From a virus: 20,883 bases of DNA. A program made the position numbers and the translations under genes. Position 1 is the first letter of the stretch. Every line of letters starts with the position of its first letter. Where the stretch lies: the IMG/VR virus record IMGVR_UViG_3300047495_000035, positions 1 through 20,883 of that record. One strand, given 5' to 3'. Below, one piece after another: positions 264-20,504 of the stretch. The notes below the pieces were generated by a model. That model saw only the letters and a list, made by a program, of their open reading frames with translations, was not told the DNA's origin and searched no databases.

Positions 264-1529
264 TTACGCTGCGGTAGACTTAAGAAAGCTAGTCACGCTG
301 CTACCGCCCTTATCCTTTCCGTCCATACCAGTTCCTTCGGTGCGACGGCGCGGAACAGAACGCCCGTTAAGGTAAGCCTCGACTGCAACAAGTTCCTGAC
401 CGGCTGCATTAAGATTAAGCTTTTCGGCGCCATACTTGGCAACTTCCGCAAGCGTCATTTCCGCGTGGTCGAATGTGCCCACAAACGGAGACAACTTCTG
501 CACAAGTGCGTCACGCTGGCGAATTTCCGACATGAAACCTTTAGGCGCGGCAGCGGCAGCACTCTTGAGCGATGCAATCTCATCAACAAGCGGCTTCACA
601 GCCTTATCAATTGCAGCGTCCATAGTTGCAATCATCTTGGCGTCCATGCCAGTTTCGTCCATATCTTCATCCATACCTTCTTTCTTATCTTTAGCGTCAA
701 TAGGTGACTTAGGATCACCCTTCTTAACCGTGCCAATCTTAGCGGTCATAGCATCCATAGCTTCTTTAATCGGCTTAATCGCAGCGTCCATAGCATTCTG
801 CATGTCGGACGGCGTAACCGAGTTGGCAAGCTTCTGATGCAAATCCGCAATCTGCGGACCAATTTTATCAAGATGACCTTTCATCTCAGCAACCGTCATG
901 CTGTCATCAGGTGCAGTCTGCTTTTCAGCCATTGGTTTAAAATCCTTTGTGTCAAACGTTGCAATTAAAACGCCGTCGATATCAGCAGCATCTAGAACCG
1001 AAACGTCAGGCCCCATACGCCCATCTTCTACAAGAGCAAGATGGTTAAACCTTATGTTGCGCTGAATAACATCATAAGGTTGACCGTTGTATGTTGGTCT
1101 AGGATTTTGACTAGACGGAGACCAATCATACTGACAGCGGTATCCGCAAGATAATTCGTCTTTACCGCTATCAATCAAATTTCTAAGAAATAGAGACCAT
1201 ACCTTGATATTGCCGTATATCGTATCATCCTTAAAGAAAACGTCTTCACCGATAACACCTTGAACACCTTTCTTTTCTGGTGGCGTGTAACCGTTGATTG
1301 CAGGATCACCGAGCATAGTGTGATCATCAATCCAAGGCAGAAGTTTTAAACTCTGCAACGTCTCAGGTTTAGACAACTCCATTGCAGGACGATACACCTG
1401 ATAAAGTGCATCAGGGTTAGGCGCTTTGATTGAACTACCACGATAGGGATATACACCGACACGGCTAAGCGGATTGGCTTTAATTTCATACCAACCATTT
1501 GCGTCAGGTATTCTAGCGCTAGCGCTCAA
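264..1529 (-). CDS. DUF2213 prohead protease fused to scaffold-like domain
   Basis: A 421-residue head-maturation protein. Residues about 1-190 resemble DUF2213: DDH (His70), LSCGY (Ser127) and NHLALVEDGR (His163) are in the order expected for a serine prohead protease, so these are the likely catalytic residues. Residues about 200-330 are charged, Ala/Met/Lys/Asp-rich and probably helical, as in a scaffold. A basic/Gly tail follows. The protein would help assemble the procapsid and be cleaved during maturation. The start is a TTG at 1529, supported by AAAGGAG seven bases upstream; there is no usable ATG before residue 50. An in-frame ATG at 932 (Met200) has its own AAAGGA sequence ten bases upstream and could give a separate scaffold. 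Gene order with the portal and MuF proteins supports the call. Confidence 0.85.
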   Translation of the reverse strand: MSASARIPDANGWYEIKANPLSRVGVYPYRGSSIKAPNPDALYQVYRPAMELSKPETLQSLKLLPWIDDHTMLGDPAINGYTPPEKKGVQGVIGEDVFFKDDTIYGNIKVWSLFLRNLIDSGKDELSCGYRCQYDWSPSSQNPRPTYNGQPYDVIQRNIRFNHLALVEDGRMGPDVSVLDAADIDGVLIATFDTKDFKPMAEKQTAPDDSMTVAEMKGHLDKIGPQIADLHQKLANSVTPSDMQNAMDAAIKPIKEAMDAMTAKIGTVKKGDPKSPIDAKDKKEGMDEDMDETGMDAKMIATMDAAIDKAVKPLVDEIASLKSAAAAAPKGFMSEIRQRDALVQKLSPFVGTFDHAEMTLAEVAKYGAEKLNLNAAGQELVAVEAYLNGRSVPRRRTEGTGMDGKDKGGSSVTSFLKSTAA

Positions 1530-1564
1530 GTTTTAGCTCCTTTGGGCATACCCGCTTCTACCAT

Positions 1565-1588
1565 AACCCTTTCTAGGTTCAAAGGGTT
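1565..1588 (-). other. Intercistronic hairpin
   Basis: Perfect 8-bp arms AACCCTTT/AAAGGGTT separated by 8 bases span the stop codon of the MuF-like gene. No T-run follows on the minus strand, so it is not an intrinsic terminator. It could affect message stability or coupling to the TTG-started DUF2213 gene downstream. Confidence 0.45.
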
Positions 1589-2499
1589 TCATCGGCTTCT
1601 GTGGTGTCGTCATCGCTGCTAAGTGTAACTATTGGAACGAAAGTGCATCTGCAATTAGGCTCTTCACCCGGCATAACGTTGTTACCGTCATCGTCACCAA
1701 CTGGCGCACCTTCGTCTAGGTTAAATGACTTACCATCGTAATCTTCATGTAGCTGCCTAGGATGTTGCGAACCTCCGCTATGTATCCATTCACCTTGTTT
1801 GATACCTGCGTTTTTCATGCGCGACAAATTCAAGTTGTTGAATGTCTTGCGCGTTTGATCCATCGCAGTATTGCCAGCCCAATTTTTAACCTTTTCTCCT
1901 TGCTTTTCAAGATAAGGGTTCAAATCAGCTAGACCTTGGCCGGTTGTAATACTGTTATAAACGGCTTGTTGCACGTCGTTTAGATATTGCTCAGGAATTG
2001 ATTTGATAAAACCGGCAGCGCGCGCGGCAGAAGCTTTCAATATCTCGCGTGTAACGCTATCCATCTTTGTTTGATCAAGTGTAAATTCAGCCGAGATTGT
2101 CTTCAAACTCATCTCAGTTGCAACGGCGCTATTGTTGTTTGTATCTTGCGCTAGCTGTTGAGATAAAATAGTAGATAAATTGCCGAATATTTGATCAAAC
2201 TTCTTTTGAAACCCATTCATCAAGATACGAGTGTCACTGCCCACAGTGGCATCTAAGCCAACCGCGTCTTGATGGGCTTGCATTGCGTCAGTTGAAAAAA
2301 GCTTTTCAATACCTGCGTTTACTTCTGACACCATGCTAGCCACAGCTTTGTTGATCGGTGATACAAAACGCTCTTGCATCCCTGCGCTAATGCGTAGCGT
2401 GCGACCTTTGATCTTTCCGCCGCCTTTGGAGCGTGCTTTCCGAGCCTGCTTAACTTTGCTCGATAAGTCTAACATGCGTTTGAGACGTGCGGACGGCAC
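1579..2499 (-). CDS. MuF-like minor head protein
   Basis: A 306-residue protein with a long, probably helical N-terminal half. The C-terminal signature is typical of the phage Mu gpF family: W238 in GEWIHSGG, H251 in RQLHEDYDG, then PG and a closing CRC triplet (283-285). These proteins are minor head components, often ejected or involved in head morphogenesis, and usually lie next to the portal gene as here. The start is a GTG at 2499, three bases after the portal stop codon, with a TAG immediately upstream in frame, so no longer form is possible; a G-run at the portal end may serve as the ribosome binding site. An ATG at 2475 is the alternative, but it lacks a visible site. The N-terminus is Lys/Arg/Gly-rich (residues 15-35). 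Confidence 0.88.
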   Translation of the reverse strand: MPSARLKRMLDLSSKVKQARKARSKGGGKIKGRTLRISAGMQERFVSPINKAVASMVSEVNAGIEKLFSTDAMQAHQDAVGLDATVGSDTRILMNGFQKKFDQIFGNLSTILSQQLAQDTNNNSAVATEMSLKTISAEFTLDQTKMDSVTREILKASAARAAGFIKSIPEQYLNDVQQAVYNSITTGQGLADLNPYLEKQGEKVKNWAGNTAMDQTRKTFNNLNLSRMKNAGIKQGEWIHSGGSQHPRQLHEDYDGKSFNLDEGAPVGDDDGNNVMPGEEPNCRCTFVPIVTLSSDDDTTEADETL

Positions 2500-2502
2500 C
2501 TA

Positions 2503-4152
2503 TTAAGCCCCCGGCATTTGAGGCACAGATGGGGTTTTCGGCCTACCAGGGGTAAGCTTCTGAGCCGCCGAGGCAACCCCCGGATCACCGCCGCCCTGTG
2601 GCGTAGGTTGCCCCGGCTGACCGGCTGGCGCGGGTAGCGACCCACCGTGCTCAGGCGTCAGCGAGGCGCCTGGAACAATGGGGGCATTGGGCGTCAGATC
2701 GTTATAGCCACTCTGATCATCGTTCCTGACCCGATTGCGCACGTCCACACCATCGATCGCGCCCACCGCCGTCAATACCTCATCAGTTTGGGATTTAAGC
2801 AAGTTCAATGCCGCCAATTCTTCTTCGGTCATTGCATCGAGCTTATTCCACATATGATCAATTCCTTTGATGTTCGGGAATTGATATTGCAGTTCGCTTG
2901 CTATCAAACAAACATGATGCTTATCGACAACCGGGCTTAAATCGTTCTCTTGAATTGTTTCTAGAAATTCGTGGTAGCTGCTTTCTTCATATTCGCCTGT
3001 CGAATTGAAGCCTTTTGGTTGTGTGCCTAGAAGCTTGGTGCCGGGAACTTCCGCAATAGCCGCGACAAGCTGATACTGCGTCATAATCAAGCTATCCATG
3101 TCGGATAGCGTTGTATCAAACTGACTTATCTTTTCGTCTGTGCCTACAACCTTAATTCCATAGTTGTCGCGAAATTGCGACCACGTATCCATTTTTTCGG
3201 CAAACTTGTTTGGATTAGTTATCGCCGCTTCTAGTTCAACATTAAGCACAGTTGAACGCTTGCTGAGTGCGAGCAACGGTGCTTCATTGGCTGTGCGCTC
3301 TGCTGCATAAATTCGCTCAGCAATGCGCTGCGGAACGCTAACGCCACCATAATAATACGCAGGCTTCAATATATCTGCGACTTTGCCAGTGCGATAAATA
3401 CACAAATGGCTCTTGTGTATCGACAAACCGTTGACGCGCCAGTAAGTAGGCTCGTAAAAACTTTGGCTAGACGGATCAACAACCGCTGCGTTGTTTAACT
3501 CTGGCACAATCCAATAAGGATCAATCTGGCTGATACCTTTGTATGTGCCGGGTTTTATCGCATCTGGATTAAACGGATTTTTGTAATATTCCTCTGGATT
3601 TGCACTATCAACGCAAAACATAGCAATACGAATGCCAAACATCCGACCAAAATGCACATACTCTTCAAGTTGTTTCTTGATTTGAAAATGCTTGTCACGT
3701 TTCTTGATGATTTTAATCATCTTCGTATCAGGTTTATCCTGATCCGCACCTATATCAATATCTAGCTCGTATCCTTTGCGGACTGCATCGGCGCCCGGCA
3801 TTTTGCACGCTTTATCTACAAGCCAATGCTGAGCTAACACCGCACAAACTTGGTAGCCGACAAAAGCCTGTGTTGCAAACCACATAAGCGCTGCTGTCGG
3901 CAATCCGGCTTCAAAAGTGCTAAATGTAAGCTGTGGTTTTACACCAGTTAGAAAACTATCCTGCCCTGTTTCGGTGTCAGTCCAATCGGCAGTTGGCGGC
4001 TTAAATGAAAATAGCTCTTGTGTTAGACGGTCACGTCTATCTCTGTTGTAAACAATGTTTGTAGAAAACAAAGACAGAATGCTTTTGCCGTTTGGCTCAG
4101 GTTGAGCGATTGGCTTAGTTTTGGCAAATAGTCGCTTCAACCAATTGAACAT
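2503..4152 (-). CDS. Phage portal protein (DUF1073-type)
   Basis: A 549-residue portal, the dodecameric channel at the head vertex through which DNA is packaged and ejected. It resembles DUF1073-type portals: an aromatic-rich segment (residues 85-115), a long central region with DPYWIVPELN (211-220) and the conserved-looking PKGFNSTGEYE stretch (379-389), where many family members have a Gly/Asn-Thr-Gly loop. Residues about 485-549 form a Pro/Gly/Gln-rich, probably disordered tail encoded by visibly more GC-rich DNA. The ATG start has AGGA upstream. It lies just downstream of TerL and just upstream of the MuF-like gene, the normal packaging order. Some DUF1073 proteins carry an anti-CBASS phosphodiesterase domain; I see no paired HxT/HxS motifs here to support that. 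Confidence 0.88.
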   Translation of the reverse strand: MFNWLKRLFAKTKPIAQPEPNGKSILSLFSTNIVYNRDRRDRLTQELFSFKPPTADWTDTETGQDSFLTGVKPQLTFSTFEAGLPTAALMWFATQAFVGYQVCAVLAQHWLVDKACKMPGADAVRKGYELDIDIGADQDKPDTKMIKIIKKRDKHFQIKKQLEEYVHFGRMFGIRIAMFCVDSANPEEYYKNPFNPDAIKPGTYKGISQIDPYWIVPELNNAAVVDPSSQSFYEPTYWRVNGLSIHKSHLCIYRTGKVADILKPAYYYGGVSVPQRIAERIYAAERTANEAPLLALSKRSTVLNVELEAAITNPNKFAEKMDTWSQFRDNYGIKVVGTDEKISQFDTTLSDMDSLIMTQYQLVAAIAEVPGTKLLGTQPKGFNSTGEYEESSYHEFLETIQENDLSPVVDKHHVCLIASELQYQFPNIKGIDHMWNKLDAMTEEELAALNLLKSQTDEVLTAVGAIDGVDVRNRVRNDDQSGYNDLTPNAPIVPGASLTPEHGGSLPAPAGQPGQPTPQGGGDPGVASAAQKLTPGRPKTPSVPQMPGA

Positions 4153-4160
4153 AATGTGTC

Positions 4161-6299: not shown

Positions 6300-6351
6300 T
6301 GCCCACACTGATGCTGTTATGTATAATGTGGGCATTGCATTTAGTAAAGTT
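6300..6351 (-). promoter_or_regulatory. Putative promoter/operator of terminase operon
   Basis: In the 69-base gap before the terminase small subunit, the minus strand has TTTACT, a 17-base spacer and TATACA, a moderate sigma70-like promoter (4/6 matches in each box). Two copies of the recurring word lie as a perfect inverted pair, TGCCCACA at 6300-6307 and TGTGGGCA at 6327-6334, 19 bases apart. One falls within the promoter spacer and the other just before the start codon. They could be a protein operator, and in the message they could pair as an 8-bp stem near the ribosome binding site. Function is inferred. Confidence 0.5.
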
Positions 6352-6361: not shown

Positions 6362-7456
6362 TTAATGCCCTGGTATGCAGTGCACAGTAGTTCCATTGGC
6401 GTTGGCTTGCAGTTGTGCTCCCCAGCGCATTATCTGATCCGGCGGGACTGCTTGCTGAAAATAACCAGTCGTTGTGCCCGGCCAGATTTCAATATCGGTA
6501 GCCCCAACATTGATCCCATAGTTTATTGTGCTGGTCCAATCTTCCAGCGCGGTATCGCTTTGTAGATTTATTGGTTTTCCAAGCTGCGTGAATAAGCCAT
6601 ACATCTGAGAGACCGTGCCATACTCCGGCATCGGCGTGCCGTTGAGGGTGCCGTTTCGAAGGGAGTGATTGGCCAGAATTGCCATTGAACCCTTAGCTAG
6701 CCGCCATGCTTGGAGTATCTGATTGGTTGTTGCCTGATCAATAACAGCAACTCCCGAGTCCAAGTGCTCAAAATTGTTGAACGCCCAATGCAGGGGCGTA
6801 TTGACCCAGGCAGCGTAGGACGCCGGCGAGTTCTCCAGGCAGCTAAGATATTGCGCATCTGTGTAGCCCGCAGCTTGCATGTTCGTGATAGCAAGCGGGG
6901 TGCCCCGTATCACGAAAGGTTCGCCGGTCGCTGATGAGCAAGAGGTATTCGAAATCTCGTGTATCAGCGGGTTCGTGTCGTATATTGCTGCGAGCTGGTT
7001 TTGTAGGCTGGTCCAAGCCGCTTGATAGTCGGCCATCCAGAACCGGCCTACGTGAAACACCTCGTCTCCGTTTATGTAGTTGATCACAGATGGGCCGTCC
7101 AGCGTCTTTGCCCAGTCAGGCGCAAGCAGTGCCTGCTCGACATTGAGGCGCACGCCGAGAGGCGTCTGCGGATACTCGGCGTTGTATGCGGAGACTACGG
7201 CAAGCGCGCTGTCAATGGTCGATGTGTCTACCGTCGCCCCTTGTGTCGCCTGAAGCGCGCTCCAGGCTATATTGATGACGACGCCGTTGAAGACGCCGGG
7301 CTCATTCTCGATCGGCGTCATGTCGTTGTCGGGATAACCGTCAGGCAGCTCATCGACCGGCCCCATGGAGATTATCCCCACGAGGGGAGATTTAACAGCA
7401 GCAAGAACGGGCGATGAAACCAGCAGCGCCCCTACGATGATCAGAAGGGCTCTCAC
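6362..7456 (-). CDS. Exported TIM-barrel-like putative glycoside hydrolase
   Basis: A 364-residue protein starting with a classic Sec signal peptide (MRALLIIVGALLVSSPVLAA, cleavage near residue 20), so it is made for export. Alternating hydrophobic strands and helices (VVINIAWSALQ, PLGVRLNVE, HEISNTSC, DIEIWPG) suggest a TIM barrel like clan GH-A glycosidases. Glu167 (in HEIS) and Glu323 (in DIEIW) are candidate catalytic acids, although I cannot assign a family. It starts at a GTG three bases after the SGNH-hydrolase stop codon, so the two are probably co-translated. Base composition is clearly more GC-rich than the phage backbone. It may digest a capsular or exopolysaccharide together with its neighbour, either as a phage depolymerase or as a lysogenic-conversion factor. 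The substrate is unknown. Confidence 0.6.
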   Translation of the reverse strand: MRALLIIVGALLVSSPVLAAVKSPLVGIISMGPVDELPDGYPDNDMTPIENEPGVFNGVVINIAWSALQATQGATVDTSTIDSALAVVSAYNAEYPQTPLGVRLNVEQALLAPDWAKTLDGPSVINYINGDEVFHVGRFWMADYQAAWTSLQNQLAAIYDTNPLIHEISNTSCSSATGEPFVIRGTPLAITNMQAAGYTDAQYLSCLENSPASYAAWVNTPLHWAFNNFEHLDSGVAVIDQATTNQILQAWRLAKGSMAILANHSLRNGTLNGTPMPEYGTVSQMYGLFTQLGKPINLQSDTALEDWTSTINYGINVGATDIEIWPGTTTGYFQQAVPPDQIMRWGAQLQANANGTTVHCIPGH

Positions 7457-7459
7457 GGA

Positions 7460-9505
7460 CTAGAACCCGACCAGATTGGATGCTGCAAAGGCTGTTGCTC
7501 CCATGTTGCCATTAAGCCCCGCTGCGATGTCGGCATGGCCCAGGTCCGTAGGATGGATGCCGTCCGACCAATGCGTCGCCCAGATCGACACGGCAGCCCC
7601 GGCAGCGGGCGCAGAGGTCAGGCCAGAGATGGTCAGCGTAGTCGACGTGTTGTCTGAGATGACCGCCGTCTGCCCGCTGGTGCTTCCCGAGGTGATCTGC
7701 ACAACCCGGTTGCTCAGGGTGTGAGCAGCATACGACGCAGCGCCGATCGTCAGAGAGGTCGTCGTCGGCGTGCCAGTGAGAACCTGGCCAGTATAGAGCG
7801 CGGTGGTAGGCACCGGCAAGAAACCACCGTTGACGGTCGGAACACCAGCCGAGTTGACCTCTCCGGCTGCCTGAGCCTCGTCGAAGCCCTTGTAGATGCA
7901 AGTGCAGGACGCGCCACCGCTGGTGACAGGGACGCCAGCCAACACCTGGAAACCGTTGCGCATCCATGTGTTTACGAATACGCGGTAGCTCTCGTAGGTG
8001 CTGTTCGCGATGGACTCATTCGCGAGCGTCAGCATGTGGTCGGTTGTGGCAACGCGCGGAATAAGATTGGAAACGATCACCCGGCGGCCGGTCTCATGAG
8101 CAAGCTGAGCCACTTTGAGGATGCAGCTAGCGGTCTGCACGCCCGTGGATGTGCCTCCGTAGATGTCGTTGGTCCCGAGGGCGATCCACACATACTGCGC
8201 ATACTGCATCAGGTTCCAACGGACATTGGACCCATATTGCCCATTCGAGAGCATCGAATTGCAGGTGGTCGAGGGTAGGCTTGCGTTGATATAGTCATTG
8301 TTGCCGCTGCCCGACATGGCCAGGCCGAACCAGCTATCGTAGAGCGCCGTCGTGCCCAAAGCCGTGCTGCCGGGAAGGATATTGTAACCAGCCCCGATGC
8401 TGTCGGCCAACAACATCGTGCTGAACCCACTGGCGGTCTGGCCGAGCAGATAGGGGCGGCTGATGAGGCCCGCATTAGGTCCGACTTCACCGAGTGCGCC
8501 GACGCCCCCGACCTGATAGGCATCGCCACCGCCGGCATACAGTGCATTGGTGCTGGCCGGGACGCCGCTGTTGTTTGCGCCCTCAACCGTGTCGTTAAGC
8601 GCATAGGTGTGGTAGGCCGACGATGGCGGCGTGGCGACGGTCGTAGGAATTGAACCGTTGTCGATAAACGTCAGGCCGGGAACTGACAGGGACCCAAGAT
8701 AGGCTTCGCTGCCGCTGGTCAATCCCCTGTAGATTTTATAGGTCTGGTAGACCGGCTGACTGCCGACTGGCGCCACAAGGGTCAGAGTAACCGTCTGATT
8801 GCCAGAGGTTGTTGCTACGGATATCTCGTTTGATGGGCTGCTTTCAACACCGTTTGCGACCGCCGTCACTTCGTAATAGTAGGTCCCGACAAACAGCGAT
8901 CCGCCGGAGGTTGCGGCTGCTGAAACGCTCGCAGGGTGACGCGTGACATAGGTCCCGAGGCGCACTGAAAAGGTGCTGCCGCTTGGAATAAAGATGCCCT
9001 GCGCTTCCGTCGTTACGCCCGATCCCTGCGTGCCGACCAACATTGAGGTCTGGCCGGCCAGCGTGAAGAAGTCGGGAGCAGTCAGCGCGGAAGATGCGCC
9101 GGAAGGGCTATATTCCGTCGAGCCATAGTAAAAAACTGGGTTGGGGAGGTTTACCTCTAACCCGCTGACGGCCGTCTGCGTCGGAAAGAAGAGTTTGAGT
9201 GACCAGATGTCGAAGGGCTCGTTATACGTGACACGAGTCGTCTCACCGTTGCCGCCTAGGATCGGTGTGAAGCCCTGCTCTGCGCCGATGAAGCTGTTCT
9301 GGCCGATAAAGCGATAGCCCGTCGTCGGGTAGATTTGTGATGCGGCGATTTTGGCATTGCTGTCGGTGGGGGCTACGCCGTTCGCAACGCCGATGGAAGA
9401 TGCAGGCACGCCGGGCGCTGTAACCGCAGCGGGCACTGCAAAAGCAGAGGGCGCCGCAACGCAGAAGGATAGCGCCGCAATTAGTGATATAAGATGCTTG
9501 TTCAT
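7460..9505 (-). CDS. Exported SGNH/GDSL hydrolase with beta-rich domains
   Basis: A 681-residue protein with an N-terminal Sec signal peptide (MNKHLISLIAALSFCVAAPS, then AFA, cleavage near 23). Residues 24-200 are beta-rich. About 205-290 resembles a fibronectin III-type repeat (TYYYEVTAVANGV, QTYKIYRG). An SGNH hydrolase follows: nucleophile Ser369 in ADSIGAG, oxyanion-hole GTND (444-447) and the catalytic dyad in DGIHPTDLGH (Asp648, His651). About 110 residues of Thr/Ser/Gly-rich beta sequence (530-645) are inserted before the last block. Such enzymes remove acetyl or acyl groups from polysaccharides. The ATG at 9505 overlaps the upstream stop (TAATG); a TTG at 9520 is less likely because it precedes the signal peptide. 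It is GC-rich. A surface depolymerase or receptor-modifying enzyme is inferred. Confidence 0.8.
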   Translation of the reverse strand: MNKHLISLIAALSFCVAAPSAFAVPAAVTAPGVPASSIGVANGVAPTDSNAKIAASQIYPTTGYRFIGQNSFIGAEQGFTPILGGNGETTRVTYNEPFDIWSLKLFFPTQTAVSGLEVNLPNPVFYYGSTEYSPSGASSALTAPDFFTLAGQTSMLVGTQGSGVTTEAQGIFIPSGSTFSVRLGTYVTRHPASVSAAATSGGSLFVGTYYYEVTAVANGVESSPSNEISVATTSGNQTVTLTLVAPVGSQPVYQTYKIYRGLTSGSEAYLGSLSVPGLTFIDNGSIPTTVATPPSSAYHTYALNDTVEGANNSGVPASTNALYAGGGDAYQVGGVGALGEVGPNAGLISRPYLLGQTASGFSTMLLADSIGAGYNILPGSTALGTTALYDSWFGLAMSGSGNNDYINASLPSTTCNSMLSNGQYGSNVRWNLMQYAQYVWIALGTNDIYGGTSTGVQTASCILKVAQLAHETGRRVIVSNLIPRVATTDHMLTLANESIANSTYESYRVFVNTWMRNGFQVLAGVPVTSGGASCTCIYKGFDEAQAAGEVNSAGVPTVNGGFLPVPTTALYTGQVLTGTPTTTSLTIGAASYAAHTLSNRVVQITSGSTSGQTAVISDNTSTTLTISGLTSAPAAGAAVSIWATHWSDGIHPTDLGHADIAAGLNGNMGATAFAASNLVGF

Positions 9506-10323
9506 TACGGTAGGTTCCAAAAGTTACCACTAGTTCCAGTTCCGAGCGTTAGCTGAGTAGCAGCAAAGGGAAGTGTTTGCAGAGCAGCGCTGGCTACGAC
9601 CGGAAAGGTCATGGTATTCCCGCTGCCAAAGGTGAGCGTAATATTGCCAGCTACCGTCACCACAAAAGCGATTGATCGCCCAGCAGTGAATGTGTTGCCC
9701 GGCGTTATGGCGATTGCGTTTGCGAAAGGCGCATTGTTGGGATCGGATACCGACCACGCACTGCCGCCCGGCGATCCCTGATTGGCAGTGACCGAGCCGA
9801 TAGCATTCGATCCAGCGGGAAGCGCGGGCAGTGAACTGACGCCGACGTTACCAGAAATGGGCTGCGTCGATGGGAAGTTTGATACCGCAACAGAGCCGAT
9901 AGCATTCGATCCAGCACCCAGGCTTACTGTGGAATTTGCGACTTCCGCTGCATACAAGGCTTTGAGCAAAGCTATCAACGTGGCGCTGCCCGAGCCGGTC
10001 CAAGCCGCGTCCGCTTTTGTGCCCATCGTCGTAATGGCGCCATCGGCATATGATCCGATAGCGGCCGTGACTGCACCGCCTCCACCGCCTCCACCGCCTC
10101 CACCGCTAGTGTTGCTAGCAATTTCCTGCAAATAGAAACACGCATTTGCATCATAAACCTGATCAATGATAATCATATTACCATTAACATCGATTACAGG
10201 AACACCAGATGAATTAACCAAAGCAATTTCAGCTTTAGTTCTTTTTATACCAGGGATTGAAACAGAACCGGAACCATCTTGAACAAGCAACTGGGCTTGA
10301 ACAATAGTTTGCGAGCCGCTCAT
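9505..10323 (-). CDS. Poly-Gly-hinged probable tail/virion structural protein
   Basis: A 272-residue protein, mostly Ser/Gly/Ala/Thr with predicted beta structure, as in phage fibre or receptor-binding accessory proteins. Residues 1-73 are encoded by AT-rich phage-like DNA. A run of ten glycines (74-83) follows, encoded by a 9-bp tandem repeat, and the rest is GC-rich. It contains two GSNAIGS repeats about 33 residues apart and a beta-rich end (TAGRSIAFVVTVAGNITLTF). Its first residues, MSGS, are shared with the 72-residue protein upstream because both starts lie in the 104-bp direct repeat. The layout suggests a conserved virion-attachment N-terminus joined by a flexible hinge to a swappable C-terminus. 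Virion location is inferred, not shown. Confidence 0.6.
   Translation of the reverse strand: MSGSQTIVQAQLLVQDGSGSVSIPGIKRTKAEIALVNSSGVPVIDVNGNMIIIDQVYDANACFYLQEIASNTSGGGGGGGGGGAVTAAIGSYADGAITTMGTKADAAWTGSGSATLIALLKALYAAEVANSTVSLGAGSNAIGSVAVSNFPSTQPISGNVGVSSLPALPAGSNAIGSVTANQGSPGGSAWSVSDPNNAPFANAIAITPGNTFTAGRSIAFVVTVAGNITLTFGSGNTMTFPVVASAALQTLPFAATQLTLGTGTSGNFWNLP
9794..9915. repeat. 23-bp direct repeat pair inside structural gene
   Basis: A 23-bp word beginning GAGCCGATAGCATTCG occurs at 9794-9816 and again at 9893-9915. The copies are offset by 99 bases, which keeps them in frame, and encode the repeated GSNAIGS motif. Recombination between them would delete 33 codons without a frameshift. 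Confidence 0.85.
10074..10106. repeat. 9-bp tandem repeat encoding poly-glycine
   Basis: Three full copies of CACCGCCTC (10074-10100) plus a partial fourth encode ten glycines in the minus-strand structural protein. The repeat sits at the border between AT-rich backbone and the GC-rich cassette. Slippage would change hinge length by three residues per unit. Confidence 0.9.
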
Positions 10324-11437: not shown

Positions 11438-11470
11438 TATTAAAATTCCTTTTGATTGGTGCCCACAGTC

Positions 11471-12302: not shown

Positions 12303-12796
12303 GCTGATATTGCCAGTTGAAATTTAGCTGTGTTAGCAACAACATCAGCCGCACCAAGCGCGCTGTTGTATATCGACTTATGATAGTCTGCCAATCCTTG
12401 CGCATCGGTTGCATTCGGCAAAGGATCGGGCGAGCGATAATATTTGATGCGCGCCATGGCACACGCAAAGAAAGCGTTACCGTATAGGTTTTGCTCGTAT
12501 GTCAAACTAGCGATAGAAAGACTTTCGATAGAAGCTCGCAAAACATAATTAGCAGGATAATCTAAAAAAGTGCTGAATTGATCCTCAAGTGTGAGAGGTT
12601 CCATCTGATCTAATCCGATCGCCGGACCATTCGGCACTTGATAGATGTATGTCAAATCGCTTTCTACTAGCGCTGTGCCAGTCAGCAAATTGATTGACGC
12701 TTGGTTGTTTAGAGATGCTTTAGCTTTGCCCAAGATTTGCAATGTGGGCACAACTACAAACTTTTTGTATTGTGATAATTGAACTAGGTCTGTCAT
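12299..12796 (-). CDS. Candidate endolysin (lytic transglycosylase-like)
   Basis: A 165-residue protein resembling a widespread phage family with a lysozyme/SLT-like pattern: LLTGTALVES with candidate catalytic Glu45, then GPAIGLDQMEP (57-67), MARIKYYRSPDPLP (114-127) and YNSALGAAD (143-151). It would cleave peptidoglycan to release phage, or locally during infection. There is no signal peptide, so it would need a holin or other export. It lies among several membrane proteins and a lipoprotein, as expected for a lysis cassette. The ATG directly follows the upstream stop. The family memory is fairly strong but enzyme activity is inferred. Confidence 0.65.
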   Translation of the reverse strand: MTDLVQLSQYKKFVVVPTLQILGKAKASLNNQASINLLTGTALVESDLTYIYQVPNGPAIGLDQMEPLTLEDQFSTFLDYPANYVLRASIESLSIASLTYEQNLYGNAFFACAMARIKYYRSPDPLPNATDAQGLADYHKSIYNSALGAADVVANTAKFQLAISA

Positions 12797-14070: not shown

Positions 14071-14488
14071 CGCTATACATTCCTAATTTCAAATACCAAA
14101 ACAAAACTGATCTAGCTTCAATCCAACCGTAGCATGTTGCAACATAATACCCTTTTTCTGATAATGCTACTTTCCAATCAATTTGGTTAGTGCCCACAAT
14201 TCCTTCACGCTTCATATTCGTTTTGATGCGCTTCAGCTCGATAAATAAACCATGCCAGCTACGTGAGGCTACAGGCAGCATCAAGTCAGGAACACCCGAC
14301 TTGACACCTTCTGCTTTCAACCGACCGGCTGTGATCTTGTCGCGCAACCCGCCGTTAGGTATGGCAAACAACAATTTCAAATCTGGATGTTCGCCATACA
14401 ACGGAGCGATAGACATAAACAACGCCGTTTGATGCGCGTGTTCTGTATTCGGTTTAGCATACTCAGCCGGATCAATCTGCTTAGGCAT
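14063..14488 (-). CDS. VRR-NUC-type nuclease
   Basis: A 141-residue PD-(D/E)XK enzyme of the VRR-NUC type: EHAHQTAL (Glu16, Gln20), FAIPNGGLR (41-49), GVPDLMLP with Asp68, and FIELKR with Glu84 and Lys86, then Gln-Trp and GYYVATCYGWIEA. The metal-binding and catalytic pattern looks complete. Stand-alone phage copies are thought to act on branched or packaged DNA or in recombination; the exact substrate is not visible here. It is typical for a phage late or middle region. The start directly follows the upstream stop codon. Confidence 0.85.
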   Translation of the reverse strand: MPKQIDPAEYAKPNTEHAHQTALFMSIAPLYGEHPDLKLLFAIPNGGLRDKITAGRLKAEGVKSGVPDLMLPVASRSWHGLFIELKRIKTNMKREGIVGTNQIDWKVALSEKGYYVATCYGWIEARSVLFWYLKLGMYSDG

Positions 14489-15357: not shown

Positions 15358-15359
15358 TC

Positions 15360-15539
15360 TTACTTCACCTTATACTTTTGAGTGAACAAATATTCAACGC
15401 CATGCACTACGGCTTGCTCACGAGTTGAAAATAATACCCTTGGGGAAAGCTCATTCTGATACAAACCGCAAGTGATCACAACTCGCTCTTTTGCGATTTG
15501 ATAAAACTCTTTAGCCTCATCCAACAAATCATCATACAT
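15360..15539 (-). CDS. Hypothetical protein, 59 aa
   Basis: Unrecognised small acidic protein beginning MYDDLLDEAKEFYQ. The ATG at 15539 overlaps the stop of the upstream TM gene and has GGGA nine bases upstream; an ATG at 15548 is a near alternative. The sequence (REQAVVHGVEYLFTQKYKVK) suggests a small alpha/beta protein. Confidence 0.6.
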   Translation of the reverse strand: MYDDLLDEAKEFYQIAKERVVITCGLYQNELSPRVLFSTREQAVVHGVEYLFTQKYKVK

Positions 15540-15669
15540 CGTAGTCATTCCCGATAGCTGTATTAATCGAGCGTGCAACAGTATCGTCAGCCGCACGCAT
15601 CAACAGCGTATAGCAAATGATGCAAGAGATGATGAAAACAATCAAACTACAATAAAGTAGGTAAATCAC
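15532..15669 (-). CDS. Small single-TM protein
   Basis: A 45-residue membrane protein (if the GTG at 15669 is used): VIYLLYCSLIVFIISCIICYTLL forms one TM helix, followed by a polar tail (RAADDTVARSINTAIGNDYDV). The GTG is preceded by GGGAAG at a good distance. The frame also holds an ATG at 15723, but that would overlap the previous gene by 77 bases and has no visible site. Unknown function. Confidence 0.6.
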   Translation of the reverse strand: MIYLLYCSLIVFIISCIICYTLLMRAADDTVARSINTAIGNDYDV

Positions 15670-15835
15670 TTTTTTCTTCCCATTCGATTGCACATTCTGG
15701 CGACATGCTGCCAGCAAGCTCATACAATAGCTTAGAGTATGTCACAGCGTCAATATGTTTCACGTGAAACTTCTGCATATAAACTGCCGTGCAATAATTA
15801 ATCCAATGCTGACGAAACTTGCTGCGCTGCTTCAT
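15647..15835 (-). CDS. Hypothetical protein, 62 aa
   Basis: Unrecognised. Basic N-terminus (MKQRSKFRQHWINYCTAVYM) and acidic C-terminus. The start overlaps the upstream stop (TAATG), part of the coupled small-gene chain. Confidence 0.65.
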   Translation of the reverse strand: MKQRSKFRQHWINYCTAVYMQKFHVKHIDAVTYSKLLYELAGSMSPECAIEWEEKSDLPTLL

Positions 15836-16200
15836 TAGTTCAACGTGCTGTTTGCAGCCTCTTGCATTGCATCAAATTGTTCTTCGGTGATCAAACTAGT
15901 TCGCACTAAATCTACACCGCGCAAGCCGTTAGACGAAAGAAATTCCATAACCTGAATGCCTTGCAATGCCGTGGATACCGCCACCGATCGCAGCAGCAAT
16001 TCAAATTCCTCTTTACCTTGCAAAGCGGCTAAGTATGACGCACCGCTCATAAACTCGGCTGCTGCTGGCGCATAAAGCTGCTCAGGAAGCTTGCGTGATG
16101 GAAGTGCATCAACAAAAGCCTTACAAAGAATATCGACAACCTCGACATTCTTTGGATCAAGCTTATTAATGTCTGTGGGCAATTGATATGGCTTACTCAT
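15835..16200 (-). CDS. Hypothetical protein, 121 aa
   Basis: Unrecognised, probably helical, starting MSKPYQLPTDINKLDPKNVE. The ATG at 16200 overlaps the previous stop (ATGA) and is preferred over an in-frame TTG at 16215. Residues 20-95 alternate hydrophobic and acidic helices (VVDILCKAFVDAL, ELLLRSVAVSTALQGIQVME). A TGCCCACA copy lies near its 5' end and encodes LPTD. Confidence 0.7.
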   Translation of the reverse strand: MSKPYQLPTDINKLDPKNVEVVDILCKAFVDALPSRKLPEQLYAPAAAEFMSGASYLAALQGKEEFELLLRSVAVSTALQGIQVMEFLSSNGLRGVDLVRTSLITEEQFDAMQEAANSTLN

Positions 16201-16388
16201 AGCACATAATGCCAATCGCCATCATCATACACTTCCAATATATTGCGCATCTGCAAGTTAGAATAAACTTCAAACGCTTTGTTGTTCTGCGCCCGAATGC
16301 CCACAATTGCTAGATTGTAATCGGGTGCGGCAGTTTCGTAAACCGTGCCACCCGCACTAATACGATACTTAAAAGTCTGATATGCCAT
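16197..16388 (-). CDS. Hypothetical protein, 63 aa
   Basis: Unrecognised beta-like small protein (MAYQTFKYRISAGGTVYETA, then AFEVYSNLQMRNILEVYDD). It starts at a TAATG junction with the gene upstream and ends in ATGA overlap with the next. It contains a TGTGGGCA copy in the minus orientation, encoding IVGI. Confidence 0.65.
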   Translation of the reverse strand: MAYQTFKYRISAGGTVYETAAPDYNLAIVGIRAQNNKAFEVYSNLQMRNILEVYDDGDWHYVL

Positions 16389-16591
16389 TAGTCAACATGC
16401 TCCTTCAACCGCTTGTTAAGCCAGCCGCGCAGCCGCTTAGCTTGCGCATGTGTCAACCACATTTCAACTTGTCGCTCGTCAGAAGTAACACATATTTGAA
16501 CGTGTTGATAATCGTTACTTGTATCAACAGTCATCAAAGTGTCGTCTTGACTATCAGAAAAATACAATTTATCTGGTATTGTGCTTGCCAT
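16388..16591 (-). CDS. Hypothetical protein, 67 aa
   Basis: Unrecognised, beginning MASTIPDKLYFSDSQDDTLM. The ATG at 16591 has AAGGAG nine bases upstream and overlaps the stop of the upstream 53-residue gene (TAATG), so it is preferred over the ATG at 16621. The C-terminal part (MWLTHAQAKRLRGWLNKRLK) is an amphipathic, basic helix. Confidence 0.7.
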   Translation of the reverse strand: MASTIPDKLYFSDSQDDTLMTVDTSNDYQHVQICVTSDERQVEMWLTHAQAKRLRGWLNKRLKEHVD

Positions 16592-16752
16592 TACAACATG
16601 CTCCTTATCTCTTCCAAACATTGACGATGATAGGCGACGTTATCAAGCTCCGTCCAACTGCTATTGATCGCATCGAGATTGTCATAGAATGATGCGATCA
16701 CGTCGTCAGATACCCAATGATTGTCAATTGGCATCCAGCAATAACCGTTCAT
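16591..16752 (-). CDS. Hypothetical protein, 53 aa
   Basis: A 53-residue frame starting MNGYCWMPIDNHWVSDDV. It fills the gap between two neighbours exactly: its ATG follows the upstream stop by one base and its stop forms TAATG with the next start. The composition (Trp, Asp, Asn-rich; acidic) is like other small phage early proteins. No family is recognised. Confidence 0.65.
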   Translation of the reverse strand: MNGYCWMPIDNHWVSDDVIASFYDNLDAINSSWTELDNVAYHRQCLEEIRSML

Positions 16753-16753
16753 C

Positions 16754-16921
16754 TTACAACCTCATTACCCAGTCGTCGGTATTATGATGCACTTCGATAC
16801 CATAGCGAAGGCCAACAGTCACAAGCTTATATGTGGCTTCATCGTCATCACGATTGAGAATTTCAATCATCTTTTCCACATACTTGTAATCGCTATACAA
16901 GCAGCCGAATTCATTGTCCAT
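16754..16921 (-). CDS. Hypothetical protein, 55 aa
   Basis: A 55-residue acidic frame, MDNEFGCLYSDYKYVEKMIE then a beta-like end (YKLVTVGLRYGIEVHHN). GGAG lies seven bases before the ATG, within an 11-bp leader (TAACCAACTCC on the plus strand) that is repeated before the next upstream gene. No family is recognised. Confidence 0.65.
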   Translation of the reverse strand: MDNEFGCLYSDYKYVEKMIEILNRDDDEATYKLVTVGLRYGIEVHHNTDDWVMRL

Positions 16922-16946
16922 TAACCAACTCCATTTGGTTGTGAAA

Positions 16947-16966
16947 GCCAGTATATTTCAACTGGC
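16947..16966 (-). other. Intergenic hairpin, possible weak terminator
   Basis: GCCAGT and ACTGGC are perfect arms around an 8-base loop between two small genes. On the minus strand only TTTC follows, so any termination would be partial. It may instead be a processing or stability element. Confidence 0.4.
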
Positions 16967-16974
16967 AATCATAA

Positions 16975-17154
16975 TCAAATGGTTTCGACTTCAACTAGAT
17001 ACCTAGCATATCTCCAACCATCTTGACCGTCATCCCATTTAACATAACAGTCAGGATTGTATTTATCAGTGTTGTCAACCTCATCAACAACACCTGTATA
17101 GTCAGGATGCCAAAGACAAGAAATCTTGTCGCCAACCTTCGGAAAGCCATTCAT
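16975..17154 (-). CDS. Hypothetical protein, 59 aa (first gene of leftward operon)
   Basis: A 59-residue frame, MNGFPKVGDKISCLWHPDYT then VVDEVDNTDKYNPDCYVKWD and a WRYARYLVEVE end. The pattern of short strands (KVGDKISCLW, CYVKWDDG) looks like a small SH3-like barrel, but no family is recognised. The ATG at 17154 is preceded by GGGAG at good spacing and lies just downstream of the strong promoter at 17186-17214, so this is the first gene of the operon. Confidence 0.7.
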   Translation of the reverse strand: MNGFPKVGDKISCLWHPDYTGVVDEVDNTDKYNPDCYVKWDDGQDGWRYARYLVEVETI

Positions 17155-17185
17155 CTAACCAACTCCCTACCGTTTCAATACAAGC

Positions 17186-17214
17186 ATTCTATCAAGCGCA
17201 AAGAATTGCGTCAA
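17186..17214 (-). promoter_or_regulatory. Strong sigma70-like promoter with internal palindrome
   Basis: The minus strand has TTGACG (17214-17209), a 17-base spacer and TAGAAT (17191-17186), upstream of the small-gene operon that starts at 17154. The spacer holds a perfect short palindrome, CGCAA-AGAA-TTGCG (17197-17210), which overlaps the -35 box and could be an operator. Confidence 0.75.
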
Positions 17215-17617
17215 ATCACAACATGTATCAAGCAACACAACCGTAGATTTTATCCTGCAACCTGAGCGTGAACAGTGCGGTATACCCCGATCTAGTAGGC
17301 TTGCTAGTAGCTGTAAGTCTTTGTTCTATATATATATAGTATATATAGTATATATAGTATAGTAGTAGTAGAGATACCTGTTATATAAAACGTATATGTT
17401 TAATATAAAAAAATATTTGCTGCTTAAATTTGATGTATTCCAAATGTATTCCAAATGTTTAATACAACTGAATAAATACAACCAAGAGTAGGTAAAAAAC
17501 GTAAAAATCGTCAAAACCATACTTTTCCTACTAACTCAATCTTTTCAATAACTTAACCCTACTACTTTCATACTTTTTCATACTTTATTCCATACTTTAT
17601 TCGGCAGGCACCACAAC
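17215..17617. other. AT-rich repeat-filled non-coding segment, candidate replication origin
   Basis: About 400 bases without a convincing gene lie between the DUF3987 ATPase gene and the leftward promoter. It holds three copies of ATATATAGT (17332-17358) running into an AGT/TAG run, two tandem copies of ATGTATTCCAA (17433-17454), and four copies of CATACTTT (17518, 17569, 17579, 17591), the last three spaced 10 and 12 bases apart. It is strongly AT-rich and easily melted. Such iteron plus AT-rich layouts next to primase/helicase genes are typical of phage origins. This is inferred, not shown. A 64-codon frame here is low-complexity and was not counted. Confidence 0.5.
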
Positions 17618-19222
17618 CTAGAGTTGAGATATTATCGGCTCGAATATTTCCATATTTAATTTGACGCACTCAATACGGCTACCTTCAATGATATGACGTG
17701 TTATTTCACCATCGCGCAACATTGAATTATAAGCATCATCAAATGCGCGAGTCTCGCCTAATTTATGTCTTCTAAACACAGCTAGCACACGACAATAATT
17801 TTTGACCGCTGATATTTGTATAATTCCTGCATCAATTAATTCTTTTTTGATCATTGGATAACCTTTGAATTTCTCGTATCCGCCAACATACATGCGTGCT
17901 ATTTGCTTGCGTATCTCGGACACCAGACGACTATCACCTTCGCCGGTTTCACCTTTGGCAACTTTGCCAGTTAATCTAGCCACGCCATTAGAAACAATCT
18001 TCCACGCGATATCGACGTGTTGCCTATCAATTGTGGGCATATAGGGATTACAGCCGATTGCTATTAGGCTGGCTATCTGTGCTGTGTGTTCTTTAGCGCG
18101 CGTCCATACGCCAGATGTTGGCAGATTGTTTGCTTGAGCCTTGACAACCTCACGCATACAGTAATTTTCAACCCAATTGAGTTTATCGCGTGCGGCGGGA
18201 TTAGCCACTACATCTGTGATATCTTCGACCGATGTTTGATGATTGATCGTGAGAGAAATATTAAACGTGTGATCAAATAGAGTAATAAGCTTATCCATAA
18301 GGCTTTTAGTTGGTGTGCTGATAGGATTTGCATTTTTAGCTGGCATAGAACCTGTGTACTCAAAAACGGTAAAACGCGGCAGAAATCCGTAAGTAAGCAA
18401 TGTGCTATTAAGATCATCATAAAACGCTTCTGGTGTGCCTGTCGCCAAGATTGTGAGACTTGCCATGTAAACATCAATCTCTGCCTGTGCTGTTGATGAT
18501 CGCTTAGAGTATTTAGCGGCACGATAAACTCGTCCCGGTCCTGACTTTTCTGTCAGCTTCAATAGCTCGTCTCTGAGTTGTTGAATGTGTGGCGGAGGAA
18601 ATGGTTGCGACATAAGTTTAATAGCATTGACAAACTCATCAGCATGCCAAAGTGTTGATGGTGAATTAGGAATGTGCTGTTGCAAACCTTGTGCTGAGCC
18701 GAAAGCATCAACAATCATTTTTTTAGTTGCTTCAACTCGCTTCTGTGCCTCAGCCCAATGCGGCGGCTTGATTTGCTCATAATGCTTTTGCAATGCGTTA
18801 ATGAGATAATCATTCGATTGAAATCCGAATGATTTTCCCATTGATGTTTGAGCTAAAACCAACAGATACATATTTAAGCCGAGTGTGCCATGTCTGTAGG
18901 CACGCGAACAAAGCAGCGACATTAGCGACAATGCTGATGCAACTGCAACTTCTGCTAGCTGCGAACTAGCTGCATTCCAACAGTAGTTTACTATTTCACC
19001 AACAAGGCCAGGAATTTCAATTGGCGGGCGAGCAACTTCTAGCTCTAGATGTCTACCTGGATCATCGATGCCCACAGGTGCGGACGTGTAATGCTTACCG
19101 TTAAGTTTGGGTTGTTCCCATGAAGGCTTAATATCCTCGCTCAGCTTAAACGGCGTGAATGGGGATTTGTTAGCCCATGGATCGTAGTCATGCGCATTAA
19201 ACCACGGCTTGTCATTGTCCAT
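17618..19222 (-). CDS. DUF3987 P-loop ATPase (helicase-like)
   Basis: A 534-residue protein of the DUF3987 type, common in phages and mobile elements beside primases. A P-loop is visible (AQTSMGKS, about 124-131) with a likely Walker B Asp-Glu (HADEFV, 194-198). Residues 1-70 are a Pro-rich N-terminal arm, about 75-420 the ATPase core with helical insertions, and about 430-520 a winged-helix-like C-terminal region (ARMYVGGYEKFKGYPMIKKE). It probably acts as the replicative helicase or helicase-like motor with the upstream primase, whose stop overlaps its start by 11 bases. No canonical DnaB-type gene is visible in the window. Confidence 0.8.
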   Translation of the reverse strand: MDNDKPWFNAHDYDPWANKSPFTPFKLSEDIKPSWEQPKLNGKHYTSAPVGIDDPGRHLELEVARPPIEIPGLVGEIVNYCWNAASSQLAEVAVASALSLMSLLCSRAYRHGTLGLNMYLLVLAQTSMGKSFGFQSNDYLINALQKHYEQIKPPHWAEAQKRVEATKKMIVDAFGSAQGLQQHIPNSPSTLWHADEFVNAIKLMSQPFPPPHIQQLRDELLKLTEKSGPGRVYRAAKYSKRSSTAQAEIDVYMASLTILATGTPEAFYDDLNSTLLTYGFLPRFTVFEYTGSMPAKNANPISTPTKSLMDKLITLFDHTFNISLTINHQTSVEDITDVVANPAARDKLNWVENYCMREVVKAQANNLPTSGVWTRAKEHTAQIASLIAIGCNPYMPTIDRQHVDIAWKIVSNGVARLTGKVAKGETGEGDSRLVSEIRKQIARMYVGGYEKFKGYPMIKKELIDAGIIQISAVKNYCRVLAVFRRHKLGETRAFDDAYNSMLRDGEITRHIIEGSRIECVKLNMEIFEPIISQL

Positions 19223-20129
19223 TATACAAGCCTAATTTAGTCAGCACTTCAATGCGCTTGTTATATTCTCTATCTAGTGCGTCAGGTGTAAGCGATTTTG
19301 GCGCGCGGTCAAATGAGCGATTAATCATGCCATGCACATACGCATCACGCTTAGCTTTGTCGCGCTGGCCTAGACCAGATGCGCGAAACAGCCGCGCAAC
19401 TTGCTCACGATTTTTGCTATAGAATGTCAGCATATCAATTAGTGCGAAGTCCGCTTCTGACTGCGATTGATTGCCATAGTGCATTTGCCAGTCACCATGC
19501 CACAACGCACCAAATTTAATATTGTTGCGTGCAGACATAGCTTGTCTGACGATAACCGCATCATCTTGGCTTTGTGGCTCGCGTCCTAATTCCCAAATCT
19601 TTAGACTATCATCATTTTTTTCATCTTTTGATAATTCAGAATAGATCGCTTCAACTTCCGTTTGGCAGTTTTGGAGCGTGATGCGATTATATGATGACGG
19701 ATCAACAAGATTACCCGTAATGGTAAAAAACCTTGCTGTATCATAAACTTCGATACCATTGCGACGTTTACCTGATCCGGGTAAGCTCGCAACACAGAGT
19801 ATATGAACGCCCTGTCCGCTAGGGCTGTATTCTGCATATGAATGTGTATTCTGGTAATATGCTTGTGCAATTGTATTGGATGCAATCCTATCGAAGTCAA
19901 TGCCGCATATTCCGGCAGTTTTAGTAAATACAAATCCAAGTCCGATATCAACTGTAACGCGCCTGACGGCTGTATCAAAGGTGCTCCAATCAAGGGGGTT
20001 GGTAACGGAAGCGTTTCGCCCATCGATTGATAAGATTGGCACTTTTGTTTGTTTTCCATCTCGCTCCTCATACTTCCAATTCACCCAATTTCTAAGTTGC
20101 TGCATCTCTCGCGGAACGTTAGCAAACAT
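19212..20129 (-). CDS. AEP-type primase/polymerase
   Basis: A 305-residue protein with the archaeo-eukaryotic primase pattern: GIDFD (76-80; metal-binding Asp78 and Asp80), SGQGVH (104-109; nucleotide-binding His109) and GIEVYDTARFFTITG (125-139). A C-terminal helical region (QSQSEADFALIDMLTFYSKN, then ARLFRASGLGQRDK) resembles the helicase-binding domain of NrS-1-like phage polymerases. It would prime, and perhaps extend, phage DNA at the origin. The ATG at 20129 has AGGA upstream; the longer TTG start at 20147 is not needed. It lies between a Cro-like regulator and the DUF3987 ATPase, apparently one early operon. Confidence 0.82.
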   Translation of the reverse strand: MFANVPREMQQLRNWVNWKYEERDGKQTKVPILSIDGRNASVTNPLDWSTFDTAVRRVTVDIGLGFVFTKTAGICGIDFDRIASNTIAQAYYQNTHSYAEYSPSGQGVHILCVASLPGSGKRRNGIEVYDTARFFTITGNLVDPSSYNRITLQNCQTEVEAIYSELSKDEKNDDSLKIWELGREPQSQDDAVIVRQAMSARNNIKFGALWHGDWQMHYGNQSQSEADFALIDMLTFYSKNREQVARLFRASGLGQRDKAKRDAYVHGMINRSFDRAPKSLTPDALDREYNKRIEVLTKLGLYNGQ

Positions 20130-20143
20130 TATCACAATCCTAG

Positions 20144-20359
20144 TCAAGAATTGATCAAAGACTTTCCTGTTAGAAACTCATAAACAGCTTGAATTTTAGT
20201 GACCGATGGATGAGTTAACTTACCGGCTGCCAGTCTAGTCAAGAAAGTATAAGTAATCTCCACTGGCTGGCATCCATCAATTATCACCTCATAGGTGATT
20301 TTGCGTGATCGGTTATTAAGTAATTCTTGAGTATGCGATACCAAATCAACGCGCGTCAT
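20144..20359 (-). CDS. Cro-like small DNA-binding protein
   Basis: A 71-residue protein. Its C-terminal two-thirds (about 33-66, VEITYTFLTRLAAGK then LTHPSVTKIQAVYEFLTGKS) follows the pattern of Cro/CI-type helix-turn-helix proteins found in many phages, in which a recognition helix precedes a conserved-looking V-x-x-x-Q-x-V-Y segment. AAAGG lies about eight bases before the ATG. It heads the leftward replication genes and faces a control region with opposed TTGACA elements, so it probably regulates its own promoter and the divergent one. No partner repressor is visible here. Confidence 0.7.
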   Translation of the reverse strand: MTRVDLVSHTQELLNNRSRKITYEVIIDGCQPVEITYTFLTRLAAGKLTHPSVTKIQAVYEFLTGKSLINS

Positions 20360-20504
20360 GTATGTGGCCTTTGCCTATATATGTGTCAGGGTCGCAAGGC
20401 ATAAGCGCCGAGTGGTCAGGTGTCAATGCCGATAAAGTCGCTTGACACACCCATTTTCTAGGTCTAGCGTGACTGTGGGCACTAGACACAGGACACCAAC
20501 TATA
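20360..20504. promoter_or_regulatory. Divergent early control region
   Basis: This gap lies between the Cro-like gene and the rightward genes. It carries a perfect inverted pair GTGTCAA (20420-20426) and TTGACAC (20442-20448), so each strand has an ideal -35 box TTGACA pointing away from the other. On the plus strand TAGCGT follows after 17 bases (3/6 match, at the most conserved positions). The minus-strand -10 is weak (TATGCC). TGTGGGCA lies at 20474-20481, just downstream of the plus-strand -10. Probably an operator/promoter region, like other phage immunity switches. Confidence 0.55.

What the first reader, a model, noticed from the sequence alone, without database searches (positions are those of the whole stretch)
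476..20481. A phage-specific 8-bp word (TGTGGGCA) occurs 12 times
I counted 12 exact copies of TGTGGGCA or its complement, against about 0.5 expected from length and composition. They occur on both strands, in coding and intergenic DNA, often as A-N-TGTGGGCA-Y. They are absent from the GC-rich acquired cassette and sit at regulatory positions (terminase promoter, early control region, gap before the holin-like gene). Orientation does not follow transcription, unlike stoperators of L5-type phages. No codon or protein motif explains them, although in genes they encode Val-Gly or Pro-Thr. A protein-binding or replication/packaging site specific to this phage is the simplest reading.
Basis: partly seen in the sequence, partly recalled or inferred. 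Interest (0 to 1): 0.75.

Follow-up and report, generated by a model that had tools for sequence, protein, structure and literature searches.

The report
Evenly spaced phage primase start sites
The repeated 8-letter word is most likely the spot on single-stranded DNA where the phage's own primase starts new DNA strands; it recurs about every 2-4 kb on each strand, in phages of unrelated hosts that share this primase, so it maps where their replication starts DNA pieces.

Summary
In detail: TGTGGGCA occurs 12 times in 20,883 bases (0.5-1.1 expected) and is the most enriched 6-12-mer. It is not specific to this phage. Two related metagenomic phages carry 28 and 23 copies, and phages of Pseudomonas, Rhodobacter, Acinetobacter, Xanthomonas and Achromobacter have TGTGGGC(A) enriched, usually as top word. 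They share a replication module whose primase is an NrS-1-type PrimPol; the window encodes one (Pfam NrS-1 HBD; profile E about 1e-45 to solved NrS-1 polymerase). Host-type genomes are not enriched, and the structural-gene relatives fetched otherwise lack the word. Sister PrimPol lineages use TGTGGTCA. The word contains GTGG, an efficient template site of NrS-1 PrimPol; phage JG054's second word TGTGGTTA is one base from its measured site TTTGGTTA. Sites are spaced per strand: 0 of 183 same-strand gaps are under 500 bp (26 expected), while opposite-strand sites can lie 27 bp apart. Best explanation: strand-specific priming sites, probably for lagging-strand synthesis, read by the PrimPol's helix-bundle domain. 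Chi, uptake-sequence, stoperator and HTH-operator readings fit worse. Binding and priming are inferred, not shown.

The parts
476..483 (-). TGTGGGCA site, in head gene
2238..2245 (-). TGTGGGCA site, in head morphogenesis gene
6300..6307 (-). TGTGGGCA site, intergenic, upstream of the small-terminase-position gene
6327..6334 (+). TGTGGGCA site, intergenic, 27 bp from the previous one on the other strand
11460..11467 (-). TGTGGGCA site, intergenic
12743..12750 (+). TGTGGGCA site, in gene
14191..14198 (-). TGTGGGCA site, in VRR-NUC-like gene
16174..16181 (+). TGTGGGCA site
16298..16305 (-). TGTGGGCA site
18032..18039 (+). TGTGGGCA site, inside the PrimPol helicase gene
19069..19076 (-). TGTGGGCA site, inside the PrimPol helicase gene
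20474..20481 (+). TGTGGGCA site, intergenic, early region
19212..20147 (-). PrimPol (archaeo-eukaryotic primase) domain with NrS-1-type helix-bundle domain: the proposed reader of the word
   Evidence: Pfam PF22763 37.5 bits, cut-off 27.9; PHROG DNA primase; profile match to NrS-1 polymerase structures
17618..19222 (-). C-terminal helicase-like half of the PrimPol, here a separate overlapping ORF
   Evidence: phrog_3022 DNA primase; 39% to the C-terminal half of the G001 PrimPol
20144..20359 (-). small protein (71 aa) just upstream of the primase, relatives annotated as HTH; considered and disfavoured as reader

Best explanation
TGTGGGCA is the template recognition site of the phage's own NrS-1-type primase-polymerase (PrimPol). 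The helix-bundle domain reads the word on exposed single-stranded DNA, with GTGG as core and the last bases (GCA here, TCA in sister lineages) adding specificity. The active site then starts a primer just 5' of the word on that template, and the phage DNA polymerase extends it. Because single-stranded template is read, a site works for one strand only, and each strand needs its own set. Selection keeps one site per roughly 2-4 kb of each strand and lets redundant nearby copies decay. The set is in effect a map of preferred start points of lagging-strand (Okazaki-like) synthesis. Shown here: enrichment, sharpness, per-strand regular spacing, retention between related phages, tracking of the word with the PrimPol module across hosts, and a shift of the word between PrimPol lineages. 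Inferred: that the PrimPol is the protein that reads the word, that it primes there, and that the purpose is lagging-strand priming.
For: (1) The window encodes a PrimPol with the NrS-1 helix-bundle domain; 12 of 13 PrimPols compared have that domain and their profile matches the solved NrS-1 polymerase at about 1e-45. (2) NrS-1 PrimPol recognises TTTGGTTA and, more efficiently, GTGG/GTGA in the template via the HBD (PMC8718748); pRN1 primase needs GTG (PMC8076596). TGTGGGCA contains GTGG; JG054's second word TGTGGTTA is one base from TTTGGTTA. (3) TGTGGGC(A) is enriched, usually top, in phages of unrelated hosts that share the PrimPol and its module: phage 73 and RcHartney, Halfdan, Pavpe01, IMEAB3, Langgrundblatt1, phiAxp-1. 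(4) Other PrimPol lineages carry another word in the same register: BRET, JG054 and Siara TGTGGTCA, Erebus CTGTGGA, G412 CCTGTGG. (5) Strand-specific spacing: 0 of 183 same-strand gaps under 500 bp against 26 expected, while opposite-strand neighbours may be close; window alone p 0.001. (6) Sites are retained between G001 and G409 at 7 of 22 aligned places against 6.3% for other 8-mers (p 3e-4). (7) E. coli and Pseudomonas genomes are not enriched. (8) In phage 73, RcHartney, Halfdan and phiAxp-1 the template bases -8 to -5 almost lack A, and BRET has them reduced, inside the footprint of an 8-nt primer.
Against: No binding or priming was measured. The whole replication module (polymerase, clamp, SF2 helicase, Cas4-like exonuclease, SSB, Sak4) is co-inherited, so another member could read the word. 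NrS-1 itself has only one TTTGGTTA and no evenly spaced word. More distant PrimPol phages (phi105, Vibrio 83AMN, the part of 9NA held) show no such word. The A-depletion upstream is absent in the window, G001 and G409. NrS-1 PrimPol is also reported to tolerate short GTG sites, which would not need an 8-mer. The tendency of '+ then -' neighbours to be close is unexplained.
Confidence: 0.8

Rival explanations
1. A phage-encoded Chi-like site: the phage's own SF2 helicase, Cas4-like exonuclease or Sak4 set, not the primase, reads the asymmetric word while moving along DNA and changes from degradation to recombination.
For: Chi is also an asymmetric 8-mer; the exonuclease, helicase and Sak4 genes travel with the PrimPol; strand-specific even coverage would suit an enzyme entering from either side.
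Against: No known precedent in such phage exonucleases (own knowledge). The GTGG core and the match to NrS-1 and pRN1 primase sites point to the primase. The depletion of A lies exactly where a primer would be templated.
Confidence: 0.1
2. A host word (host Chi or DNA-uptake sequence) that the phage has accumulated.
For: The same statistic finds E. coli Chi in enterobacterial prophages; density is of the order seen for uptake sequences.
Against: The same word is enriched in phages of Pseudomonas, Rhodobacter, Acinetobacter, Xanthomonas and Achromobacter and not in the Pseudomonas and E. coli genomes tested; no genome of 399 in one order has phage-like density. For uptake, orientation should not matter, but spacing is regulated per strand.
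Confidence: 0.03
3. Operators or stoperators of a phage repressor, or sites of the small HTH-like protein encoded just upstream of the primase.
For: Copies lie in the gap before the terminase genes and in the early region; 4 of 12 are intergenic; the small gene accompanies the primase in most of these phages.
Against: Orientation does not follow transcription; most copies lie inside genes; the small protein is replaced or not recognisable in phage 73, JG054 and BRET, which keep the word or its sister word. Operators would not space themselves evenly per strand.
Confidence: 0.04
4. Site-specific nick sites as in T5-type or phiKMV-type virion DNA.
For: Short asymmetric words with strand-specific placement are known for such phages (own knowledge, not tested here).
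Against: Both strands carry sites, some 27-135 bp apart on opposite strands, which would tend to break the genome. No shared nickase was identified.
Confidence: 0.03

Closest known systems
Primase recognition site of deep-sea phage NrS-1 PrimPol (TTTGGTTA; GTG/GTGG), PMC8718748
   Same: 8-nt or GTGG-cored asymmetric template site; same enzyme family with the same helix-bundle domain; one-base neighbour word TGTGGTTA in JG054
   Different: in NrS-1 the 8-mer occurs once; here 12-28 copies spread evenly on both strands
GTG recognition motif of the plasmid pRN1 primase ORF904, PMC8076596
   Same: GTG core read by a helix-bundle domain; primer made 5' of the motif on the template
   Different: 3-nt motif on a plasmid; no genome-wide spaced 8-mer described in the text read
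T7-type primase sites (GTC) (own knowledge)
   Same: sequence-specific priming of the lagging strand
   Different: 3-nt sites, far too frequent to set fixed start points; unrelated enzyme family
Escherichia coli Chi (GCTGGTGG)
   Same: asymmetric 8-mer over-represented across the genome (picked up by the same statistic in enterobacterial prophages)
   Different: a host word; TGTGGGCA is independent of host
L5-type stoperators (own knowledge)
   Same: many short asymmetric sites over a phage genome
   Different: orientation there follows transcription; here it does not

Membership tests
NrS-1-type PrimPol recognition site | A PrimPol with the NrS-1-type helix-bundle domain is encoded in the same genome | tested here: met
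NrS-1-type PrimPol recognition site | Word contains a GTG/GTGG core or resembles TTTGGTTA | tested here: met
   TGTGGGCA contains GTGG; 5 of 8 bases as TTTGGTTA
NrS-1-type PrimPol recognition site | Presence of the word follows the PrimPol lineage, not the host | tested here: met
   exceptions among distant PrimPols (phi105, Vib83AMN, 9NA)
NrS-1-type PrimPol recognition site | Sequence-specific binding and primer start 5' of the word | not testable with these tools
   needs purified enzyme
Chi site of the host | Over-represented in the host chromosome | tested here: not met
   Pseudomonas and E. coli genomes not enriched; the window's own host is unknown
DNA uptake sequence | High density in the host chromosome | tested here: not met
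   399 genomes of one order: at most about 1 per 11 kb; the true host is unknown
L5-type stoperator | Orientation follows transcription | tested here: not met
   nearly all main genes are on the - strand while sites are 5 + and 7 -
T5-type nick site | Single-strand breaks in virion DNA at the word | not testable with these tools
   needs virion DNA

The most novel reading that the evidence does not exclude
A whole class of phages of Gram-negative bacteria carries a genome-wide, evenly spaced, strand-specific map of long primase start sites whose word drifts with the PrimPol lineage (TGTGGGCA, TGTGGTCA, TGTGGTTA, CTGTGGA and others). Their Okazaki start points would thus be hard-wired in the sequence and readable by computation, unlike in the well-studied phage replisomes.
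Probability: 0.65. Interest if true: 0.85.

Novelty: new variant of a known kind. Interest (0 to 1): 0.78.

Why it matters
It would tell, from sequence alone, what NrS-1-type PrimPols recognise in vivo and where they prime, in cultivated phages (phage 73, RcHartney, BRET and others). Fixed start sites at 2-4 kb spacing would make the question of how Okazaki start sites are chosen directly testable, and the pairing of enzyme lineage with word offers a natural specificity code for the helix-bundle domain. It also gives a computational marker that links metagenomic phages to their replication system.

Tried and rejected
Host-word idea (Chi or DNA uptake sequence): favoured at first when only metagenomic phages had the word, dropped. 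Search for the host by word density in 399 genomes of one order found none. Single-protein scans with the portal and the primase found no close relatives in the virus collection. Pfam named almost none of the small window genes. A single-sequence structure model of the PrimPol was poor (pLDDT 37) and was not used. Literature searches for the word, its sister word, or primase sites in these genera found no earlier report in the open-access library; subscription papers are not covered, so an earlier report cannot be excluded. The idea that absence from the cassette is meaningful was rejected. TTTGGTTA as a spaced word in NrS-1: one copy only. Small upstream gene as reader: disfavoured.

Full report
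Observation. TGTGGGCA is present 12 times at the stated coordinates, against 0.5-1.1 expected for Markov orders 0-4. It is the most enriched word of 6-12 bases under orders 2-4 with correction for the number of words. Single-mismatch copies are at chance level, and all TGTGGG hexamers of the window lie in full copies. The window is a whole 20,883-base virus record, probably a fragment of a tailed phage of about 45 kb by comparison with its relatives: TerL is 63% identical to Burkholderia phage Magia, portal 47-50% to other phages.

Which relatives share it. Of the loci fetched through TerL in genome and virus collections, only one metagenomic phage (L117, record G001) shared the word; a portal search added one more (L174, record G409). 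G001 has 28 copies in 44.7 kb and none of the reversed control word; G409 has 23 and one. The two are syntenic and share TerL, portal, head genes and primase with the window, most of them at 35-61% identity. In enterobacterial relatives the same statistic found the Chi octamer, which at first suggested a host word.

The word follows the primase, not the host. [quoted passage not shown] Annotated phages with related PrimPols were then fetched. Pseudomonas phage 73 and Rhodobacter phage RcHartney, phages of other hosts and of other structural type, have TGTGGGC as top word (20 against 0.98; 26 against 1.64). Halfdan, Pavpe01, IMEAB3, Langgrundblatt1 and phiAxp-1 have it too. The Queuovirinae BRET and JG054 have TGTGGTCA (21 against 1.12; 17 against 1.5), as has Stenotrophomonas phage Siara (20 against 1.36). 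JG054 also has TGTGGTTA (10 against 0.4). Erebus shows CTGTGGA and G412 CCTGTGG. Phi105, Vibrio 83AMN and the part of 9NA held, with more distant PrimPols, show nothing comparable. E. coli and Pseudomonas chromosomes are not enriched in either word.

Strand-specific regular spacing. In G001, G409 and the window no two same-strand copies are closer than 913 bp; 14.3 closer gaps are expected, and none of 20,000 simulations did as well. Over 12 phages, 0 of 183 same-strand gaps are below 500 bp against 26 at random, whereas 26 of 129 adjacent opposite-strand pairs are. Per-strand coefficients of variation are 0.36-0.42 in G001 and on the + strand of G409 (p 5e-5 to 2e-4). The window alone gives p 0.001. 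Some genomes are skewed to one strand (G409 17:6, RcHartney 18:8), and the majority strand is then covered evenly from end to end. Sites are retained between G001 and G409 at 7 of 22 aligned places against 6.3% for other 8-mers (p 3e-4). Related phages share some sites, so the phages are not fully independent samples.

Mechanism. NrS-1 PrimPol recognises TTTGGTTA and, better, GTGG/GTGA on the template strand; the HBD is the domain held responsible, and synthesis starts at the first base upstream (PMC8718748). The pRN1 primase of the same superfamily needs GTG and makes 8-nt primers (PMC8076596). TGTGGGCA contains GTGG. In phage 73, RcHartney, Halfdan and phiAxp-1 the template bases -8 to -5 almost lack A (1-4% against 22-25%) and in BRET A is reduced (12% against 29%), inside an 8-nt primer footprint; this is not seen in the window, G001 or G409. 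The best reading is therefore a primer start site read by the phage PrimPol on single-stranded DNA, needed separately on each strand every few kb, most simply for lagging-strand synthesis. Binding and priming are inferred.

What does not fit yet. '+ then -' neighbours are closer than '- then +' neighbours (medians 842 and 1567 bp, p 0.009), with no ready explanation. NrS-1 itself lacks a spaced word. Other proteins of the replication module are co-inherited, so a phage-encoded Chi-like function remains possible at lower probability. The small gene upstream of the primase is disfavoured as reader because it is not recognisable in phages that keep the word.

Novelty. Primase recognition sites are a known kind. 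An 8-nt site placed at even intervals on each strand over whole phage genomes, and drifting with PrimPol lineage, was not found described in the papers searched.

Noticed in passing
window 17618-20147, - strand: The PrimPol is split into two overlapping ORFs (primase+HBD and helicase-like), where G001 and G409 have one 782-827 aa protein; the junction lies in the linker, with the new ATG overlapping the stop region. Natural split, frameshift or sequencing error cannot be told apart; Xanthomonas phage Langgrundblatt1 is also annotated as split, elsewhere.
   Followed up: partly
L254, L255, L256, L259, L261: bases -8 to -5 before the word: A is almost absent (1-4%) in four phages and reduced in BRET at these template positions, while T is not; a primer made there would lack T/U in its second half. 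Absent in the window, G001 and G409.
   Followed up: partly
window, G001, G409, L254, L255: Convergent neighbours ('+ then -') are closer than divergent ones (all phages: medians 842 and 1567 bp, p 0.009). No explanation found.
   Followed up: partly
window 6362-10323: GC-rich block (about 60% against about 44% around it) with a 686-aa protein bearing a weak GDSL-esterase match; possibly acquired receptor-binding or surface-modifying genes.
   Followed up: no
G409 (L247-L249): A second repeated word, CGGCTACGGC, 16 copies against 0.33 expected, unrelated to TGTGGGCA.
   Followed up: no
L026, L041, L044, L047, L063: Enterobacterial prophages related by TerL have the E. coli Chi octamer (GCTGGTGG) as their most enriched 8-mer (18-23 copies against about 2).
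   Followed up: no
L253 (Nitratiruptor phage NrS-1): AAAGTGTAAC, 10 copies against 0.08 expected, clustered (as close as 12 bp) like operators or iterons; the measured PrimPol site TTTGGTTA occurs once, at 17198 on the - strand, just after the PrimPol gene.
   Followed up: no
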